A DNA stretch of 64,000 nucleotides, taken from NCBI GenBank assembly GCA_025174535.1, contig JALBUN010000012.1, positions 897,262 through 961,261 of the forward strand, in the 5' to 3' direction. The DNA is from Cantharellus purpuraceus (Eukaryota > Basidiomycota > Agaricomycetes > Cantharellales > Hydnaceae). Made by a program: the position numbers and the translations under genes. This document shows positions 30,056 through 46,902 of the stretch, in pieces; within the stretch, counting starts at the first letter, position 1; the number at the start of each line of letters is the position of its first letter. The notes beneath the pieces were generated by a model, which was given only the letters and a program-made list of their open reading frames with translations, had not been told where the DNA came from and did no database searches.

Positions 30056-30139
30056 CTGAGCCCCTGAGGCCTCATGTCCATGGATTGAATAGGTGAGACA
30101 GTTGGGCGCAGTCGGAGTTATACTGGGGGTCTGGAGACA

Positions 30140-30147
30140 TATAAAAG
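30140..30147 (+). promoter_or_regulatory. TATA box of the antisense accessory gene, copy 1
   Basis: TATAAAAG lies 15 bp before ATG 30,155 and 36 bp before in-frame ATG 30,176, on the strand opposite to pol. The same box with the same spacing is at 36,901-36,908 in copy 2. A start site about 30 bp downstream would favour ATG 30,176. Confidence 0.6.
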
Positions 30148-30261
30148 GAGGGGCATGATTGAGGTGTTATCCCCAATGATGTCAAACCCTTTGGCAAGCA
30201 TGAGCGTGGCCAAACTTGAGCAGTTGCTCTTGGCCCGACAGAAGGAAGAGGAAGAGGAGCA

Positions 30262-30732
30262 GAGATGGAAAGAGGAGGAGGAGGCAGAATGGAGACGGAA
30301 GGAGGAGGAGGAGGCAGAACGGAGACGGAAGGAGGAGGAGGAGGTGGAATGGAGATGGAAGGAGGAGGAGGAGGCGGAATGGAGATGGAAGGAGGAGGAG
30401 GAGGCGGAATGGAGATGGAAGGAGGAGGAGGAGGCGGAATGGAGATGGAAGGAAGAGGAGGAGGCAGAACAGAGATGGAAGGAGGAGGCAGAACGGAGAT
30501 GGAAGGAGGAGGCAGAACGGAGATGGAAGGAGGAGGCAGAACGGAGATGGAAGGAGGAGGCAGAACGGAGATGGAAGGAGGAGGCAGAACGGAGATGGAA
30601 GGAGGAGGCAGAACGGAGATGGAAGGAGGAGGCAGAACGGAGATGGAAGGAGGAGGCAGAACGGAGATGGAAGGAGGAGGCAGAACGGAGATGGAAGGAG
30701 GAGGCAGAACGGAGATGGAAGGAGGAGGAGGA
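30262..30732 (+). repeat. Coding tandem repeat, 30-bp then 24-bp units
   Basis: About seven 30-bp units (EEEEAERRRK-like) are followed by ten 24-bp units (GGAGGAGGCAGAACGGAGAT plus 4 bases) encoding EEAERRWK. Copy 2 (37,010-37,200) has only a few 30-bp-type units and no 24-bp array, so the array expanded after the copies diverged. All unit lengths are multiples of three, which keeps several frames open on both strands. Confidence 0.9.
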
Positions 30733-31201
30733 GTGGAGATGGAAGGAGGAGGAAGCGAAAGCAGAGCGAGCCTGCATAGTCAAGGAACTTGCGGCTGCAA
30801 TGGAGGCTGCAAGACTGAAGGAAGTGGAAGAGCAGGTGCACGAGCTAGCAGCCGCCATGGAGGTAGAGGAGGAGGTGACCGGGGCAGGGGCAACCAGTCA
30901 CTTGGGGAGTCCGAGTGTGCCAGTACGGGCATGGACCCCTGAGGTTGCCATCATCTCGATTACACAGACAGAATCAATCTGTCCAACGACTGCCCTATGG
31001 TGGACTCGCCGTTATGCCTGCAGTCACGGCTGTTATTTGCGGTGGGTGCGGCGGAGGTGGAGAGGGTGGAAGTGGAGGCGGTTCCTGATGCCAATATGGA
31101 GCTCAACGCAAATGCAGAGCCCAAGGGCATGGATGTTGGGATGGATGCAGAGCTGGATCTGACCTCAAATTGTTACAAGGAGATGGCTTGGGTAGCCACG
31201 G

Positions 31202-36915: not shown

Positions 36916-38090
36916 ATGATTGAGGTGTTATCCTCAGCAATGTCAAACCCTTTGGCAAGCATGAGCGTGGCTGAGCTTGAGCAGTTGCTCTTGGCCCGAC
37001 AGAAAGAGGAGGAGGAGGTGGAATGGAGGCGGAAGGAGGAGGAGGAGGAGGAGCGGAGATGGAAGGAGGAGGAGGAGGCGGAATGGAGATGGAAGGAGGA
37101 GGAGGAGGTGGAATGGAGACGGAAGGAGGAGGAGGAGGCGGAACAGAGACAGAAGGAGGAAGAGGAGGTGGAGCGGAGGCGGAAGGAGGAAGACAGAAGG
37201 AGGAGGCAGAGATGGAATGGAGATGGAAAGAGGAGGAAGCGAAAGCCAAGTGAGCCACCCAGGAAGTCCAAGTGTGCCAATACGGGCAGGGACCCCTGAG
37301 GTCGCCACCATCTCCATTACATGGATGGAGACAACTCGTCCGACAACTGTCCCTATGGTGGACTTGTTGTTACGTCCGCGGTCACGGCCATTATTTGGGT
37401 TGGGGGTGGCTGAGGAAGATGAAGCGGCGAGGTGGAGAGGGTGGAGGTGGAGGCAGATCCCAATGCCAATATGGAGCTCAAAGCCAATGCAGAGCCCAAG
37501 GCAGGCGTGGATGTGGGGACGGATGCAGAGCTGGATCCAACCTCAAATTGTTACGAGGAGATGGCTTGGGTAGCGGTCGAGGCTCAAAATTGAGCAGAGC
37601 TTTATGCTGCTACCACCAAGAAGAACCTCAAGGTCACGATCTTTTCATTGAAGGCGCACCTGAGTGCTGATATGGAGAAGCGGGAGGTGGATCAGAGGGT
37701 CATATGGTGCAAGGCAGAGAGTTGCGTGTTGGCAACCCGTAAGAAGGAGCTGCATGTCGCTATGTCAGCAATCCAGCTTCGCAAGCATGAGATGGAGAAG
37801 GCGGCAGCTGAACAGCAGGACAAGGAGGAGGAGAGGGAACACTTGGAGGCCATGTTGAGAAGGAGTGGACCACCCAAGGCTCTGGCTCCAACGGAGCCAT
37901 TCGGCAGGCTGGTGTAATTTGTGACTTGTGTTGTGATGCAGGCGTGGAGTGTGTGTGGCCTACCGGCCCAACTCGCCGCCTTTGGTCCTGTGATCATTGT
38001 TGGGGTCGGAAAGGAGGGTGTAGGGTCAATGGGAAGTTCGATCCTGGAGTCGGGGCGTCAAGCCCTGACTAGTGGTACAAGGAGGGGCGG
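36916..38090 (+). pseudogene. Antisense accessory gene of family A, copy 2, truncated
   Basis: Same N-terminus as copy 1 (MSNPLASMSVAELEQLLLARQ), a shorter charged repeat, a middle with AELYAATTKKNLKV and ADMEKREVDQRVIWCKAES, and the Zn2Cys6 region (CDLCCDAGVEC, then CDHCWGRKGGC). Frameshifts occur in the repeat and near 37,590 (TGA) and 37,915. It is cut at 38,090 by the second LTR-H copy. At 37,570-37,580 it preserves the uninterrupted site where copy 1 carries LTR-H. Confidence 0.7.
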
Positions 38091-39505
38091 TGTCGGTTCG
38101 CTTAAGGAATAGATCCTATAAGCCTGCATGCAACAGTCCTAGCAAACAGACAGTGTGTAGCGCAGTTGTTCAGCACTCCAAAGATCAATCAGGGTGAGGG
38201 ATAAGTAACAGGGAAGTGGGATAGTGCTCTGTGGTTGGATGGGGATGGGAGCTAAAGGTCGGTCCTGATGGCTGATCGTGCTCTGTGACTGGATGACAAT
38301 GCGGAGCCCGGTTGGGAGGTACACAAAAGCTGGTTTCAAGAGAAGCAACCTCTCGGTGGTGGAGGGAAATCTGATCATTGAACCAAGGTGTTTTACCTCA
38401 GTGTAGAGATGATGGATTGTGATGTAGAGCGTAGAGCATAGACTTAGAGCGTGGACTTTGACTTTAGAGCATTGGCTGAAAACTTGTTGATTCATTCCAA
38501 AGGTGAAAACTAGCGCCCTTTTATATACAAATCCCCAGGGCACAACAACACAATATGAGGAGCAAATGATGCAATATGATGCAAGAAATGCTGATCAAGC
38601 CAGCTGACGAAGCGTGTGAAGTTGAACTACTAAAGGGGGTAATCATGGAGAAATGAAGCGACAGATAGGGGTAATCTTTGTAAGAATAGGGGTGATGAGT
38701 AATAAAAGAACCAAAAATAGAACAAGGATGAGTAAGTCGTGTATGAATGAATTAAAAGATGAAACAGGGGTGAGTCATATAAAAGAACAATAAAAATGTC
38801 CACCAATACCATCTTCCCTACGGCTCCGAAGGTAAATTGACCCTGAGTCACATGAGGACTTCAGTCAGCATCCACAACAAATACTCCTTATTGTCTTAGT
38901 GATCCGTCTCCATATGGTATCCCGTTCCAAGAGTATTCGGTCCCTTTGCCTGTCACGATGTAACCTGAGTCGGATTGAAGTGGGAGGATAGGTCGGCAAT
39001 GGTGACTGAAATTCTACCTCACGTTTGACTCTTCCATCTGTGTTACAATATAGAGGTGAAATGTCGAGGAATGTATATGGTTCAACGGAATTGTGAAAGA
39101 ATATGGGATTGCCAATGGCATAAGAGAGACATGGTGGGGATCTTGGATGTTGAAAGAGTTTTGGAAGTATTTTGACATGTGGAGGTGGCTTAACATGCCC
39201 GTGGAGCTCAGCATATTTTTGATAGTCCTCTGTGTCCAGAGACCAGTGTGACGTATTATTAGAAGCGATGTTGGAGAGGGGAATAGAATGGGAAGCCATG
39301 TGAATGATGATGAAAGGATTGGTGTGAATAGAAGGCTGATAATGATCGATGGTGATGAAACATGAGTGACGATCGATGGCTAGAATTAGAGACTGAGGTG
39401 GAGAGGGAGTTGCGGCACTATTTAAAAGTTGATATGAAAAGATGCTGGCAGAGTTGGACTGTCAGAGTGGTTCGATATTCGTCCTCGATGCGTCCTGGCT
39501 CGTCA
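38091..39505 (-). mobile_element. LTR-like unit H, copy 2
   Basis: 1,415 bp, TGTCGGTTCG to TGGCTCGTCA, highly similar to 31,202-32,611. The flanks do not match (GGGGCGG versus GTGCC), and LTR-A sequence follows directly, so recombination or deletion has replaced the original right flank. Confidence 0.8.
38865..39299 (-). CDS. Small conserved ORF in LTR-H, copy 2
   Basis: 144 residues, MASHSIPLSNIASNN..., nearly the same as the ORF at 31,977-32,405. It has two extra codons (HNSVEP versus HNSP). The reading frame is open in both copies although the surrounding retroelement genes are broken, which hints at constraint or recent copying. Confidence 0.55.
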   Translation of the reverse strand: MASHSIPLSNIASNNTSHWSLDTEDYQKYAELHGHVKPPPHVKILPKLFQHPRSPPCLSYAIGNPIFFHNSVEPYTFLDISPLYCNTDGRVKREVEFQSPLPTYPPTSIRLRLHRDRQRDRILLERDTIWRRITKTIRSICCGC

Positions 39506-39914
39506 GTGCCCTCACTAATACCAGTGTCTGAGATTTTGGAGATGGAGTACAACTTAGAGAGTTAGGATTGGACTTAGGAACTAGGCGTGATTCGATATTT
39601 GCACTGGGGAATGAAGTCCCCAGTCAGGCAACTTAAATACATATTTTGAAATCTAATAATAATGACTCCGGTGATGGGTCTCCAAGGCCGACAACCTTAC
39701 ATGAGTATGTCCAAGTCCGATGGGGACAGATGTCTGGGTTCCTATGGTGATGCTGATGCATCAATTGGAACTGGAGATGGATGGGTGGAATCGGTGGTGA
39801 CAATTGGACAGGTAGATGGAGATGGCGGTTTCCAAATGGAGTATAGATTTCATATGTGTGGGGATCTGAGTGGATCGGACAGGGATCTGGACATTAATGA
39901 ATATAGTCATAACA
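39506..39914 (-). repeat. Truncated family A LTR
   Basis: Matches the distal about 410 bp of LTR-A (from CTCACTAATACC to TCATAACA). The proximal end was lost at the LTR-H junction. Confidence 0.82.
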
Positions 39915-40799
39915 CAGTTCCAGTGTCACCATCAAAGCTTTATTATGGGCTTTGATTATTTTATAGGGCCCAATATACCTGGGCACTAGTTTGCTGGTTC
40001 TACCCTTAGGTAGAGTCAAGTTTTTTGTTGAGAGATAGACTTTGTCACCTTTCTGGAAGGTTGGACCTTCCCAATGTTTCTTATTGGCATGAAATGTCTG
40101 AATGATGCAACTTTCTATAATCACATCATGTGCTGCTAGCAGGTTCATTTGAGCCTGCTGTGCAAATTGTTTGACACCCTTGAACTTGGTGTCATTGTTA
40201 ATGGGCATGCCTATTCTAGGCATATACCCATGGTTAAGCTCAAACGGAGTAAACCCCGTTGTTGAGCTTATGTTGGAGTTTAGCACAAACTCCACCATTG
40301 GACACTTGGGTGCCCAATCCTTCTGATCACTTTGTATAACAGTACAAAGTATTTGGCCAATGGAACGATTCGCTCGTTCCGTCACTCCATTCATTTGTGG
40401 ATGGGGTGCTGTGGACATGAGGAGTTTCACTCCCATCATCCACTGTAGTTCATGCCAAAAGATAGATGTGAATTTCAAATCTCAATCAGACATGATCGAG
40501 TCTGGTACACCGTGAAGGTGTACAACTTCTTTAAGGAATAGCCATGCTACTCCTTTCGCTGTTACATGCATGTTTGTAGGTATTATATGTACCTGCGATG
40601 TGAAGCGATCTATGACTACCAGTAGGTAGTCATAGTCATTTGATCTTGGTAATGGACCCATAAAGTCCATACCTATCAATTGCCAGGGCCACTCCAGTAC
40701 TGGCAAGCTATGAAGAAGCCCTGTGGGTTTCTTCATACTGTCTTTATTCATTTGGCACTTCACGCACAAAGTGCAGAATGATTCGACATCAGTGGTCAT
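39894..40799 (-). pseudogene. Family D integrase
   Basis: Two open stretches: CTLCVKCQMNKDSMKKP (zinc domain CxxC), WQLIGMDFMGPLP and LLVVIDRFTSQVHIIPT (core with first Asp), then TAPHPQMNGVTERANRSIGQIL (third catalytic residue Glu), LNSNISSTTGFTPFELNHGY, GDKVYLSTKNL and YIGPYKIIKAH. The second Asp sits at the break (SIMSD), where a TGA separates the stretches near 40,482. The C-terminus runs into LTR-A sequence, and no chromodomain is visible. Confidence 0.85.
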
Positions 40800-41086
40800 G
40801 CTTGACCACCAGTACAGCCATCAAATGTAATTTGTGGTTTTTAGTCAACCAAAATGGCCAATTACTTGGTGTGCATGGTTGATTATTATTTCAACCAGCC
40901 TCCTCCCCTTCAGGAATGCTGAGCAGGGTATACAGATGAAACAAGATAAGAACTCCCACCACCTAATCTGTCTAGGAGACAGGTTCTTTTGGGTCTTGAA
41001 GTATTCAAGACCCTTGTGGTCAGTTACTAGGATAAACTTTCATCCTAGTAGCTTATCTTCCCATCTCATTAGGGCTTTGAGCACAG

Positions 41087-41446
41087 CTATAGTCTTGTGC
41101 TTGTGGGTCTTATAGTGCTGTTGTGCAGCACTAAATTTCTTGGATAGGAATCTGGCAGGCCAACAGGTCTGCCAATCTTTTCCTTGTCCATAGATGGCTC
41201 CAACTCCAGTTTTGGAGCCATCAGTAATAACCCAAATAGTATTGGGGCATCGATGGGCTTCAATATTGGAGCCCTACACACTAGGAGCTTGATGCTTTCA
41301 AAGCATTTCTCCAGCAGTGGTGTCCATAAGAATGGACAATAATTATGAGCACAACCCAATAAAGGGGTTGTGTATGCAGTTATGTCTGGCATATAGTGAG
41401 CCAGATACTGCACTAGTCCAAGAAAATGTTGGACTTCGTGGTACAA
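41087..41446 (-). pseudogene. Family D RT/RNase H connection remnant
   Basis: VQHFLGLVQYLAHYMPDITAYTTPLLG matches the conserved segment that follows the RT thumb in gypsy pol (FLGLANYYRRFI type). It is followed by a short, frameshifted RNase H piece. The YxDD-bearing RT core that should precede it is absent. Confidence 0.75.
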
Positions 41447-41898
41447 CCTAGGTCATCTCCACTCTCATATTCACTTGTCAGGATCCATGAGATTAATCTT
41501 GTGGTTAACTTCCCTAAATGGGGGAAGTTCTAAGGGTATGCTGCCAAATAGGTCAGCATACTTTTCTTTCCATTGGTCCCTCAACTGAGGGATCTGATCA
41601 GCCATGTAATCGGTTGATTCTTCATGAGATGAAGCTATTTCTTATTTGAATCCTTCATTGGGGGGTCCTTTACCAAGTCTAGTCCTTCTTTTAGGAAGGA
41701 CTGTGTTGTGGGTAGCTCATGTTTAGAGTTACCCCCTTGGTGTCATTTATTCATGCCAATACTCCTTCTTCGCATTGAGTTTATACCCCATGATGGGGTA
41801 CAAAGAGTATTGGCATTATGCTCTTCATTGGTGGGGACTTCTTCAGTTCCCATCATGATTCAGCCTGGGCCATTAAAGTCCAGGCATATTCCTAGCTT

Positions 41899-42150
41899 TC
41901 ATAGGAATGGGGTACCAAATATTACATTGTAATACTCAACATTGGTGACATTGAAATATTCTTCAATGTCCTGACTACCAAATTTTATGGTAGTGTGAGT
42001 ACCATAATTGGTACTCCTGCTCCCAATGCACGCTAATTGCAGTGCAATGGGTTGCTCTAGCACAAAGGTTTTCCTACCTGTCACTTGTGTAAATTCAGGG
42101 GATATCATTATCCCCTCACTCCCACTGTCTAATAGACAGTGAGCCACCAA
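41899..42150 (-). pseudogene. Family D aspartic protease
   Basis: CLLDSGSEGIMISPEF carries the DSG catalytic triad of retroviral-type proteases, and VIFGTPFL matches the conserved ILG-type flap end. The reading frame is short and stops before RT, in line with a decayed polyprotein. Confidence 0.75.
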
Positions 42151-42754
42151 TCTCCCAATACCCAGAGATTGTTTTATTGTCTATGCATGGTCTATCTGGT
42201 TGTGCTGTTGACTTCTGTTGGCTCCTATGATTATACATAGGTTTGGCCAATCTGTCGACACTGACAGCAGCTATATGCAGCTGTTGTGATTCCCTGCTTC
42301 TCGGGAATCTTGTTGCACTACAGAAACACACTGCATAGGTGTGTTTCAGTGGAATTTGATCATTGGGTCAAATTCATATTGCATTAGAGCGATACATTGG
42401 CATAGCCTCCTTTTCAGGGGCATCATCTTGGTCGTCCCATTTGTATGGGGCAACCTCTTCATCCCATTTATCAGCCACTTCTATAGCTGGTATTTTCCCA
42501 TCTAGATGGTCCTTGGGATCATCCATTGCTTCTTCATGTTCTCCCTCTATTGGGGAGAATCTGTCTACATTGTCCTCCACTATGTGTGAGAACATGTCTT
42601 TTTGGACCACAGCCAACCTTACATTGCCCTTTAGTTTGGGGCAGCTGGGTCACATGTGACCTGTCTGGCCACATTTGTAGCACACAACGTTACTAGTAAT
42701 GTTGTTCAATCGATCACCACTCATGTGTGCTGGTAGCTTTGATTGATAATTACC

Positions 42755-43282
42755 TGTTATAACTATATTCATTAACACCCAGATCCCTGTCTGATCCACT
42801 CAGATCCCCATGCATATGAAATCTATACTCCATTTGGAAACCATCACATCTCCATTTATCTGTCCAATTGTCACTGCCAAACCTCACCCATCCATCTCTG
42901 GTTCCGATTGATGCATCAGCATCACCATAGGAACCCGGACATCTGTCCCTGTTGGACTCGGACATACTCATGTAAGGCCATTGGCCTTGGAGACCCATCA
43001 CTGGAGTAATTATTATTAGATTTCAAACATGTATTTAAGTTGCCCAACTGGGGACTTCATTCCCCAGTTCAAATATCGAATCACACCTAGTTTCTTAGTC
43101 TGATCCTAACTATCAAAGTCGCACTCCATCTCCAAAATCTCAGACACCGGTATTAGTGAGGGTGCAGCACATAAGCTGAAGCCAAGTCCGTTCCAACCCC
43201 CACAATGCACCCTGATTCCTTCTCTGACTCCGATCAAACCTCCAACTGAACCTCTGACCCCCAATTGGACCAGTGTGTAACA
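42755..43282 (+). mobile_element. Solo family A LTR in family D gag, TTACC target duplication
   Basis: 528 bp, TGTTATAAC to GTGTAACA, in the reverse orientation relative to the E1-E2 LTRs. Flanked by TTACC at 42,750-42,754 and 43,283-43,287. It splits the family D gag between the SNNYLFKG stretch and the zinc knuckle, so family A was active after D inserted. Confidence 0.93.
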
Positions 43283-45015
43283 TTACCCTTGAAAAGGTAA
43301 TTATTGGAATTGGACCTGGAGCTTCCATTATGGGGTTCCAACCTTGACACACTCATTTGTTGTGAGTGTGTATTGGGAGCTGTATACACATGTCCTTGGG
43401 GTGTGGGTTGACTCCCCATATTCATCATACCAGTAGTTCTATTGACTACTGGTCTATGGGTTGAGGAGGACATGTTAGTTGCATTCTCTGGGCATCGCAT
43501 ACCATGGTGGTATCATGTTGCTTCCTCTATCATTTGAGCAGTTTCATACAACTGCTTGATACTGCTAAACTCAGCATTGAAGCCCTTTTTGAGGACTTCT
43601 TGTCTCAGAGGTTCACCCATTGCGGTTACAAACCTCTTCCTGTATGTGTATGTGTCCAGTGGCATTATCATGTGGCCTGCATACTTATCTAGGTCATTCA
43701 CTAATTTGTGAACGGTCCTTTGACCCTGTATTACAGAGTCAAATTTATTTGACACATGGTGATGCATCAGGGTGTGTAGGAATCTACAGTGCAATCCTTG
43801 GATTGCAGTTTCCAGGGTCCAGTCTTGGACTGCCCTGTTGTAGTGTTCTACATTCCTGTAGAACCATTCCTGGGCCTCACCTTTAAGGTGAGTGCCTAAG
43901 TACAATAGCTGAAACTTTGTACTTGATGGCCTTAGGAGATTATTCATCTTCAGCCATCGTAGCATACCTGCTACAAAGATCTCAAACTCTTTGAAATCTG
44001 CACCTCCTGCGTATTGCTCAGGAGGTGATACTTTAATGCCTGCCTTGGCAAGTACAGACTTCTCTGTGTCTGTGTCTCTGTAATCAACTATGGCTACTTG
44101 CACCATGCGAGTAATGCCATCAATAGGATCAATTGTGTCCAATTGATGCAGTATGCCTTGACCTTCTAGGGTCAATGGTGCTGATTGTTCCCTATTATGG
44201 GAAACATCTTCTTGAGGTACCCATTGGGTATCTCGTTGCTCATGGTGGGTGTCTCCTGAGAGGCCCACTGCTTGTATGCGTTGATAACTGTTCAGCGCAT
44301 GTTGCAACTGTCGATTCAAATCAACAGCCACATTGAGCTCTTGCTGGGGCTGCTGCTCTCTAAACAGCTGGCCAAGCTCCTACTCTGCATGTTTAGCCTT
44401 CCATTTGAGGGCTAATCTATGTTTATGAGAAACCTCAACTTCTTGTTGTTTCCATAGCTCAATCTCTTGATTGAGCTCCTTTGTCATAGATTGAGGAGTT
44501 TCCTCTTCAATCTGGATCAGTAATCCTTGCCTCACTGGGATTACTGGGTCTCTAATTCCCTCCATTGGGAAAATTTCATTTCCTCTGTCTAACTGATCAT
44601 TTGGTTGGACCCTCTCACCCTGAGGAGGTCCAGACTCTCTGGATTCATATTCTTGTCGAGAATCTGATCTTCAGCAATGTGACTTGCATCGCTCAGAGTT
44701 CTCTTGGAGCGATTTTAACATCATTCCTAGCTCTGCTATTTGCTGCCTCATAGTAGTGGCAGCATGCCCTGCTTCAGCAGCCATCTTAGCTGCCTGAGCA
44801 CTAGCTTCGCTAATGCTCTCCATCCCATGTTGATTATGCATGAGTTGTTCAGTCAATCTTGCGATTGACCTGTGGGTTTCACGCCACTCCATGCTGCACA
44901 ATTCCCTAGTAGAAGTATTGCTACTTCTACTTGTGCTCATATATTGAGCATGTTCCTTTCCTTTAGGAACATTGGAGACAGTGGATGACTGTCTCCTCCT
45001 TTCTTCTCTAATCAA
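43283..45015 (-). pseudogene. Family D gag region
   Basis: Long gag: IARLTEQLMHNQHGMESISEA coiled N-part, Glu/Lys-rich middle (IELWKQQEVEVSHKH), then the capsid-like part with LAKAGIKVSPPEQYAGG, FVAGMLRWLKMNNLL, LKGEAQEWFYRNVEHYN and YAGHMIMPLDTYTYRKRFV. Frameshifts separate the three stretches. The zinc knuckle (CYKCGQTGHM then a TGA, then PSCPK) lies beyond the inserted LTR. Confidence 0.75.
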
Positions 45016-45706
45016 AGAACCACTCGATGAAGGGTTCTTGTTTGACAGACAATCTATTGTGTGATCATCTGTGTGGTCTCACGATTGCAGTGACTCTCTT
45101 CTAGAGTCTTCCTTATGAGAAGTCCCTGTGACTTCTCTAGGGTCTAGCTCCCCTTCCTGGGAGCTTCTGCTGCTGGCTACATGCTGCCATTCATCATTTA
45201 TGATGTCCTGTGCACTGCCAGCATGACTCACTCTACTGCAAGTCATCATTATGATGACTCCTTTCTTTCTTCTATCTTTGTAGGCTAACTAAGTTAGTCT
45301 ACTAGTTGCTCACTTATATGAGCGACTGGGGGGGTTGGTATACATCTGTACACCAGCAACAGCTGGTTTTCTAGTATTGACTGGAAAACTTTAATAATGA
45401 GGAAGAATCAATTGATTCTTCCTTTGGAAGTTCAAAAAAGTGTTAATGGGTGTCTTAGTTCACACCATTGCACAGAACTCAACCAAGTGTATTGGTTGGG
45501 CGATGTGTTGTACAGTGTGGTTGTTACTAAGTTCTGTCTACTATATGTGGACCCACACGTGTACTTGGGTCCACTGGCTTACATAATAACTATACATATG
45601 CACTATGGGTGCATATATCTACCAAGAGGGCAGCATTCCTTAAGGGAATACTGCATATATTAATTGTACTTATATGTTATAGTAAGTAAGTACCTTGGGT
45701 ACTTAC

Positions 45707-46109
45707 ATCCGAGCAGCTATCACTATGGATGTTGATACACTCCACTCCGATATCCAATCTGCACTCCAATCAGATCCAGCCATCTCTGATCATCTCAATA
45801 AACCAATCAATCACTGGTCCATTGACCTGGAAGGCTTACTCTGTCTTGACAACCACATCTACATCCCTGATGTGAACAATCTCTGACTCCATGTACTCCA
45901 GAACAAGCATGATCATCTGATCTCTGGTCACTTTGGACAAAACCAAACTATAGATCTAGTCAGGCAAGACTATGTCTGGTCCAAACTCTGTGGTTCCATT
46001 AAGTCCTATATCAAGTCATGTACCATTTGTATGCGCTCAAAGTCACAGAGACATTGTCCTTATGGACTACTCAAGCAACTCCCCATTCTGGAGAGTCCAT
46101 GTATTGCCT
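45707..46109 (+). pseudogene. Family F integrase zinc-domain fragment, plus strand
   Basis: Encodes MDVDTLHSDIQSALQSDPAI, INHWSIDLEGLLCLDNHIYI, then HDHLISGHFGQNQTIDL and CTICMRSKSQRHCPYGLLKQ, the H-H-C-C domain that opens gypsy integrase. It stops at LPILESP, exactly where the minus-strand piece at 47,960 begins (WNSISMDFIKKF). Confidence 0.8.
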
Positions 46110-46902
46110 GAGTTATTTGAGTAATGGTGACTCATGCTCTAACTCCTGCCATGACTCATAACTATTAATAGGTAGAAGGATTAGTCAGCTCCTGTAGATA
46201 CAGTATATAAGGAGGCCATTTTGCCTCTGAATAAATAACCATTTCTACTCCATCATTTGCACATCAGTGTGACTAGAGTGACATACAGTGTCATCCTCTA
46301 TATCTCAGTAACTGTTGATTGTTCAAGGGTCACTTACAGTTGTGTAACTGTATTCGATTGCACTTGAAGTAGTGATTGTCCTGCTTTGGGAATGAGTGTA
46401 GTATCTACCTCATGTGACTACAAATCTACAGGGTGAGATTGTCTGTCAATAGTCCTGCCATTAGTGCTCTTGTTTAAGTTACTAGTGTGTACTGCCTTAG
46501 CAGAGCATTAGGATCTTGAACTCGTGTGAAGCAGTTGCTAGACTACTTCACACATTGCTGTTACCCACTTCAGAGTGTCACTGGTTGGACAGTCAGATTC
46601 ATCCACCTACTTCCTCTAGCCTCTAAGTGCATTCCCCTCTTTTTGGAATGTCTGGACCCCTAAGCATCTGTGAACTCTAGAATCTGGAAGTCTTATTCAT
46701 TCCCTACTGCTAAGAAATGTATTACCTTTCTGCATATAGTCTGCATTGACCATTACAATGGATTGTAACCAAAGTACAAATGTTAAAATCATTTCTGGAG
46801 TTGTGCTGCAGTAGGATTTGATATTCTTCTCAGCTGTTCATTCATGGAATTGTGGTGATTTAGAGTTTTCCCTAACACCATAATTTTGTAGGTTCCAAAA
46901 CA
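46110..46902 (-). repeat. LTR-B copy, minus orientation
   Basis: About 790 bp; read on the minus strand it starts TGTTTTGGAACC. It matches 61,800 onward (+) and 23,581-23,962 (+). It follows the family F chromodomain on the minus strand, so it is the 3' LTR of family F. Confidence 0.82.

What the first reader, a model, noticed from the sequence alone, without database searches (positions are those of the whole stretch)
39950..45706. A gypsy retrotransposon saturated with short perfect hairpins
Across about 5.7 kb of family D, inverted repeats with 6-11 bp stems and 1-10 nt loops occur roughly every 30-40 bp, in integrase, protease, gag and the non-coding end alike. I counted more than 40 by eye. 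Exact cases: 40,505-40,523 (stem 7, loop 5), 40,610-40,635 (stem 11, loop 4), 40,991-41,013 (stem 10, loop 3), 41,025-41,050 (stem 9), 41,194-41,223 (stem 11), 41,784-41,800 (stem 8), 42,123-42,141 (stem 9, loop 1), 43,790-43,807 (stem 8, loop 2), 43,876-43,892 (stem 8, loop 1), 45,403-45,420 (perfect 18-mer), 45,547-45,574 (stem 9), 45,686-45,706 (stem 9, loop 3). Inspected stretches of E5 and family A pol are not like this, and the LTR-A inserted in D is not either. Conserved protein motifs are kept, so the pattern must be carried largely by codon choice. Possible causes: template switching during reverse transcription that perfects quasi-palindromes, or selection for a structured RNA (packaging, masking from RNAi). 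I know of no described retroelement with this property.
Basis: partly seen in the sequence, partly recalled or inferred. Interest (0 to 1): 0.93.

Follow-up and report, generated by a model that had tools for sequence, protein, structure and literature searches.

The report
Retrotransposon packed with tiny DNA palindromes
A fungal jumping gene carries short, perfectly matching hairpins about every 40 to 60 letters along its whole length, far beyond chance and in every copy examined, which suggests that its own copying process writes palindromes or that it needs a densely folded genome.

Summary
In the window D spans 39,915-45,708, less an inserted family-A LTR at 42,754-43,282. It has 62 perfect inverted repeats (stem ≥7, loop ≤10) against 2.8±1.0 in dinucleotide shuffles. 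In 200 codon shuffles each, gag, IN and an ORF3 piece never reach the observed counts. All 41 D-bearing loci examined are saturated: 11.5 per kb in D against 1.5 outside. D is a Ty3-type LTR retrotransposon with an extra uncharacterised ORF3 before the 3' LTR. ORF3, absent from the window copy, is saturated too.

Stems are Watson-Crick perfect, loops run from 0 to 11 nt, sense G·U pairs are not preferred, and complementarity stops abruptly. A third to a half of the hairpins differ between D lineages, yet density stays high. This fits templated palindrome correction during reverse transcription better than ordinary selection on RNA folding. But a few compensated changes, a strong C-G/G-C polarity of the stems and a loop-base bias suggest that folding matters. 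No single template-switch event was caught, so the cause stays open (0.4 against 0.35). Ten paper searches listed no such retroelement; the nearest case is nematomorph mitochondrial coding palindromes.

The parts
39915..45708 (-). D copy in the window: Ty3-type LTR retrotransposon, truncated at its 3' end by a family-A LTR, with internal deletions against L031 near 40,936 (~500 bp) and 41,472 (~650 bp, which in L031 holds reverse-transcriptase sequence); hairpin-saturated throughout
45441..45708 (-). 5' LTR of D (about 268 bp; sense begins TGTAAGTACC); hairpins at 45,682-45,706, 45,596-45,616, 45,547-45,574, 45,480-45,498
   Evidence: many matches in the genome end at query 268-272 (solo or 3' LTRs), others run on to 279 (5' LTR plus leader)
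43513..44331 (-). gag ORF, 272 aa (Ty3_capsid PF19259, E 8e-6, below the curated cut-off)
41902..42180 (-). protease region (open piece with DSGSEG; the matching piece of L031 hits Asp_protease_2 and RVP_2)
40848..41273 (-). RNase H region, broken frame (the matching L031 pieces hit PF17917)
39915..40820 (-). integrase: zinc-binding PF17921, weak core PF00665 (below cut-off), C-terminal SH3_Tf2-1 PF24626
42754..43282 (.). family-A solo LTR inserted in D; not saturated; not part of D
40610..40635 (.). example hairpin in integrase, stem 11 loop 4
41193..41222 (.). example hairpin, stem 11 loop 8 (corrects 41,194-41,223)
45400..45423 (.). perfect 24-nt palindrome, stem 12 loop 0, in the leader
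44001..44027 (.). example hairpin in gag, stem 9 loop 9; in the divergent copy L050 the hairpin at this place has an 11-bp stem, loop 1

Best explanation
D is an old, decayed family of a Ty3-type LTR retrotransposon whose whole sequence (LTR, leader, gag, pol, ORF3) was loaded with short perfect palindromes while it was active. Most likely cause: during reverse transcription the nascent cDNA folds back at a short imperfect palindrome, the reverse transcriptase copies the first arm into the second, and then resumes. This is quasi-palindrome correction by template switching. Repeated over many cycles and filtered by the need to keep the proteins working, it keeps hairpin density high while individual hairpins come and go. 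Shown: saturation, its presence in all sampled copies, its absence from the other elements and ORFs tested, Watson-Crick perfection, no sense G-U preference, abrupt ends, turnover, some compensated changes. Inferred: that the reverse transcriptase is the agent, the snap-back step, and that no function is needed.
For: Other LTR elements and host-like ORFs tested in the same window sit at or near chance, so host replication alone does not explain it. Stems are exact. In column majorities, mismatches inside otherwise long stems are A-C 13, G-U 10, other 8 (CpG-variable columns included). One-sided changes in older lineages are A-C 20, G-U 14, other 13 plus A-C 8, G-U 11, other 1. At stem edges A-C is in mild excess (69 v 43 expected) and G-U is not (38 v 32); A-C in sense is G-T wobble in the cDNA strand, as a fold-back of cDNA would allow. 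Complementarity beyond the outer mismatch is at chance at once (201 of 835 v 0.249). Loops are flat from 0 to 11 nt then stop; spans are mostly 19-26 nt. Lineages share only part of their hairpins: 27 of 41, 9 of 18 and 7 of 15, yet all are dense. Precedents: template switching creating perfect hairpins (PMC8794818; abstract and sections 8 and 9 read); nematomorph coding palindromes with the same all-or-none identity and turnover (PMC6649704; abstract, Discussion and passages read).
Against: No single multi-base template-switch event could be shown; the clustered differences found are confounded by CpG decay or need two events. Unbiased correction should leave stems diverging as fast as loops with mostly two-sided changes; instead one-sided changes outnumber compensated ones (47 v 5). 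Loop-proximal pairs are strongly 5'C-G3' (inner three pairs 106 v 35 at stem >=7, 140 v 62 at stem >=6; shuffles at stem >=6 671 v 726), and the first loop base is C in 29 of 77 sense loops (p 1e-4), which this model does not predict. The pair asymmetry (C-G 258 v G-C 191, A-T 292 v T-A 267) is opposite to the one PMC8794818 derives for snap-back correction of G-U. The rRNA yardstick for abrupt ends did not discriminate.
Confidence: 0.4

Rival explanations
1. Selection for a genome that folds into many short local hairpins (RNA or single-stranded cDNA): for example dispersed packaging stem-loops bound by Gag, a compact RNA that resists pairing with small RNAs, or protection during reverse transcription. 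Individual hairpins are interchangeable, density is what is selected.
For: Stem polarity 5'-G..CC[loop]GG..C-3' (stem >=7: inner three pairs CG:GC 106:35, outer three 48:76; ORF3 31:17 and 18:26) and first loop base C 29 of 77 look like a shared structural grammar. Compensated pair changes: 5 of 516 cells in nine older rows (two lie in overlapping hairpins and one joins adjacent bases), 3 of 92 in L050, 1 of 89 in L051, against 5 of 13,216 in the main burst. Stems less diverged than loops and spacers between lineages: 6.0% v 15.9% and 13.1%.
Against: No G-U preference in the sense strand. The stem-conservation test is biased because stems were called in one of the two sequences compared; the unbiased lineage-to-lineage comparison gives 6.7% stems, 6.8% loops, 9.0% spacers, not clearly different. 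Loops of 0-2 nt are as common as loops of 3-4 (17 v 17), though as a matter of general knowledge such inner pairs cannot form. Sense is no more stable than antisense. An E. coli rRNA region, a selected structure, has only 1.3 such repeats per kb.
Confidence: 0.35
2. Both: template switching supplies perfect hairpins and a mild advantage of folded RNA or cDNA keeps those with stable loops.
For: Explains perfection and turnover together with polarity and compensated changes.
Against: Less economical; neither part is shown directly.
Confidence: 0.18
3. Chance, base composition, CpG decay (many TG/CA) or assembly artefact.
For: D is strongly CpG-depleted (o/e 0.18), which raises TG/CA.
Against: Dinucleotide-preserving and codon-preserving shuffles never reach the counts; 41 loci on many contigs agree.
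Confidence: 0.01
4. Insertion of a mobile palindromic unit, or an element-specific DNA-level function of palindromes (for example binding sites).
For: Palindromes are strand-symmetric.
Against: The hairpins have different sequences (list), no self-repeats over 100 bp are found inside L031, and many lie within conserved coding frames.
Confidence: 0.06

Closest known systems
Ty3-type (gypsy) LTR retrotransposons with Ty3_capsid gag
   Same: Gene order gag-PR-RT-RH-IN between LTRs, Ty3-like capsid, Tf2-1-type SH3 after IN; 148 gag relatives in public predicted proteins from jgi and ena sources
   Different: Hairpin saturation; an extra ORF3 of about 600 codons, no Pfam family, 9 uncharacterised relatives, between pol and the 3' LTR
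Coding palindromes in mitochondrial genes of Nematomorpha (PMC6649704; abstract, Discussion and passages read)
   Same: Perfect inverted repeats inside coding frames, all-or-none identity, gains and losses between relatives, template switching proposed by the authors
   Different: Mitochondrial host genes, repeats up to 284 bp; here a nuclear retroelement with palindromes of about 14-30 nt
Template-switch hairpins in RNA genes (PMC8794818; abstract, sections 8 and 9 read)
   Same: Proposed mechanism for perfect stems and instant compensated changes
   Different: RNA genes and DNA replication; pair asymmetry there is G-C and U-A, here C-G and A-T
Genome-scale ordered RNA structure of some RNA viruses (recalled; only a search listing seen)
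   Same: Structure dispersed over coding and non-coding parts
   Different: As recalled it is a statistical excess of folding energy with ordinary imperfect helices, not a saturation with perfect short palindromes

Membership tests
Ty3-type LTR retrotransposon | LTRs flanking the element | tested here: met
   LTR of about 268 bp; by position, a 5' LTR before gag (e.g. C37, C35) and an LTR about 117 bp after ORF3 in 4 places (C48, C23, C10, C18) found in two capped lists of about 40 matches each. No copy with both LTRs was read as sequence
Ty3-type LTR retrotransposon | order PR-RT-RH-IN (IN after RT) | tested here: met
   L031 pieces in order: Asp protease, RVT_1, RT_RNaseH, Integrase_H2C2, SH3_Tf2-1
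Ty3-type LTR retrotransposon | Ty3-like capsid in gag | tested here: inconclusive
   PF19259 E 8e-6, 25.8 bits, under the curated cut-off of 29.1; many of its relatives carry PF19259
Chromovirus branch | chromodomain at the end of IN | tested here: inconclusive
   The 78-aa piece at L031:828-1061 looks like one to the eye but hits no Pfam family at E 0.01; only one decayed copy was tested
Template-switch (quasi-palindrome) mutagenesis | perfect inverted copies with abrupt ends | tested here: met
Template-switch (quasi-palindrome) mutagenesis | multi-base changes in one arm explained by one copying event | tested here: inconclusive
   candidates confounded by CpG decay
Selected RNA secondary structure | compensated changes | tested here: met
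   5 + 3 + 1 compensated cells in older lineages, few and not all independent; in the main burst the two-sided changes are mostly CpG decay
Selected RNA secondary structure | G-U tolerated more than A-C in the transcribed strand | tested here: not met
   G-U is never clearly above A-C (11 v 8 is the only set where it is higher)

The most novel reading that the evidence does not exclude
A retroelement lineage whose own reverse transcription writes short perfect palindromes over its whole genome, so that the element evolves as a self-renewing field of hairpins constrained only by its proteins, possibly exploited for packaging or for hiding from small RNAs.
Probability: 0.4. Interest if true: 0.9.

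Novelty: new variant of a known kind. Interest (0 to 1): 0.78.

Why it matters
If palindromes are written by reverse transcription, this family is a natural record of template switching at a density that makes the process measurable, and shows that a polymerase habit can shape codon choice over about 9 kb. If instead they are selected, it is an extreme case of genome-wide structure in a retroelement, with a stem polarity that could be tested as a packaging or protection signal. Either way it is a clean system for the open question of how perfect stems arise and persist in coding sequence.

Tried and rejected
Covariation within the main burst: 54 of 1,046 pairs had two-sided alternatives, but mostly these are CpG sites decaying independently to TG and CA, so not compensation. 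Stem conservation looked strong but is inflated by calling stems in one of the compared sequences; the fair version is not clearly different. rRNA as yardstick for abrupt ends was uninformative. Relatives' DNA from public contigs: gag in viral contigs and genome contigs found none, and no scan of metagenome contigs was available, so no DNA from other species was compared. 'Second family H2' was first taken as separate, then shown by position to be ORF3 of D. ORF3 fold: mean pLDDT 35, not used. Rfam and tRNA scans of 39,000-46,500 found nothing. Paper searches: (66, 67 and 75 returned no paper); none of the titles listed describes such an element.
Full report
What is there. The window lies at the end of contig C12 of a 40.15-Mb assembly. 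D occupies 39,915-45,708 on the minus strand, cut by a family-A LTR on its left and carrying another family-A LTR at 42,754-43,282. Compared with locus L031 it lacks about 500 bp near 40,936 and about 650 bp near 41,472; the latter holds reverse-transcriptase sequence in L031. Open pieces read in order give Ty3 capsid (below cut-off), aspartic protease, reverse transcriptase, RNase H, integrase zinc finger and Tf2-1-type SH3. The copies L041 and L043 go on into a second saturated stretch. In four places its genome matches end about 117 bp before a D LTR in the same orientation (both lists capped), so it is ORF3 of D, about 600 codons, no Pfam family, with 9 uncharacterised relatives. By addition D is roughly 9.3 kb; I did not read any copy with both LTRs.

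Is it more than chance? Yes. In 5,265 bp of D in the window: 62 perfect repeats of stem ≥7 and loop ≤10 against 2.8±1.0 in 10 dinucleotide shuffles; 37 v 0.6 at stem ≥8; 17 v 0.1 at stem ≥9. Six other parts of the window are at or near shuffle level (the mild exceptions are given under the observation check). With 200 synonymous codon shuffles the D gag, IN and ORF3 pieces exceed every shuffle at stem ≥6, ≥7 and ≥8, while none of eight other ORFs does (one equals its maximum at one setting). Across 41 loci D segments hold 1,428 repeats in 124,333 bp (11.5 per kb, range 9.2-18.0) and the rest 217 in 143,799 bp (1.5 per kb, which still includes at least 46 in ORF3). Of 49 loci 8 were dropped as duplicates; two pairs of the 41 are halves of one copy and several others are near-identical duplicates of one another, so the 41 are not independent. 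An E. coli rRNA region holds 1.3 per kb.

Shape of the hairpins. In per-piece column majorities 99 stems of ≥7 were found with loops up to 20. Loop sizes are flat from 0 to 11 and then drop to background; total spans are mostly 19-26 nt; centre spacing has median 40. Beyond the first mismatch complementarity is at chance (201 of 835). Sense G·U is not preferred: inside long stems A·C 13, G·U 10, other 8 (both column classes summed). At stem edges A·C is 69 (about 43 expected) and G·U 38 (about 32 expected); the A·C excess would read as G·T wobble in the cDNA strand, but against each other the two stand close to their composition (69:38, expected about 58:42 in percent). Polarity is strong: at stem ≥7 the three loop-proximal pairs are C-G 106, G-C 35, the three outer pairs 48 and 76; at stem ≥6 140:62 and 84:99; shuffled controls at stem ≥6 671:726 and 761:684; ORF3 agrees weakly, 31:17 (p 0.06) and 18:26. 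The first loop base is C in 29 of 77 (p 1e-4); the last is A in 37 of 77 (p 0.08). These patterns were looked for after seeing the data.

History. The main set of copies is a burst: by piece, median divergence from the column majority is 1.1-4.0% outside CpG sites, with heavy CpG depletion. Within all rows taken together, 54 of 1,046 pairs show two-sided alternatives, mostly CpG decay products in independent combinations. Nine alignment rows of older D lineages, from five loci, and two gag copies at 62% and 72% protein identity give the evolutionary test. 27 of 41 hairpins of the older rows sit at the same place as in the main set, 14 do not; seen from the main set 27 of 56 are shared. L050 shares 9 of 18 and L051 7 of 15. 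Non-CpG pair cells in the nine rows: 461 unchanged, one-sided G·U 14, A·C 20, other 13, compensated 5, other two-sided 3. L050: 81 unchanged, 8 one-sided, 3 compensated; L051: 76, 12 and 1. My hand estimate under independence is about 1.9, 0.5 and 0.6 two-sided changes of any kind, so compensation is in excess but rare; some of the cells share ancestry or lie in overlapping hairpins. Stems diverge less than loops and spacers (6.0, 15.9, 13.1%), but the comparison free of that selection of stems gives 6.7, 6.8 and 9.0%.

Mechanism. Both templated copying and selection predict high density with turnover. Perfection without sense G·U preference, flat loops down to 0 nt, abrupt ends and restriction to one of the elements tested favour copying during reverse transcription. 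Polarity, the loop base and the scarcity of compensated relative to one-sided changes do not follow from the simplest copying model and leave room for selection. I therefore give 0.4 to copying, 0.35 to selection and 0.18 to both. That the phenomenon itself is real is close to certain.

Known or new. Nematomorph mitochondrial palindromes (PMC6649704) and template-switch hairpins in RNA genes (PMC8794818) are the nearest described cases that I read in part. Ten paper searches, of open-licence papers only, listed no retroelement described as saturated with palindromes. As an element D is an ordinary Ty3 kind with an extra ORF; the saturation is what sets it apart.

Noticed in passing
L043:7558-9550 and L041:9188-10000 (+): ORF3 of D, about 600 codons, uncharacterised, conserved core (MNLxDVDVWMWLQ) in 9 relatives; hairpin-saturated (29 repeats in 2 kb).
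   Followed up: partly
window D pieces against G000:C2 near 384,700-389,500: Each of three D pieces searched (41,000-42,000, gag, LTR) has a match shown as 100% on contig C2 about 41-46 kb from that contig's end, while the window is the end of contig C12: recent segmental duplication or overlapping contig ends.
   Followed up: no
window 39,915-45,708: CpG o/e 0.18 in D against 0.62 in the rest: strong CpG decay of this family.
   Followed up: partly
protein hits P0029 and P0127: A gag relative and an ORF3 relative both come from ENA contigs of 4,655 bases: perhaps one contig with a compact D relative.
   Followed up: no
window 30,118-31,162 and 36,977-37,573: Two stretches of short tandem repeats with overlapping repetitive ORFs.
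   Followed up: no
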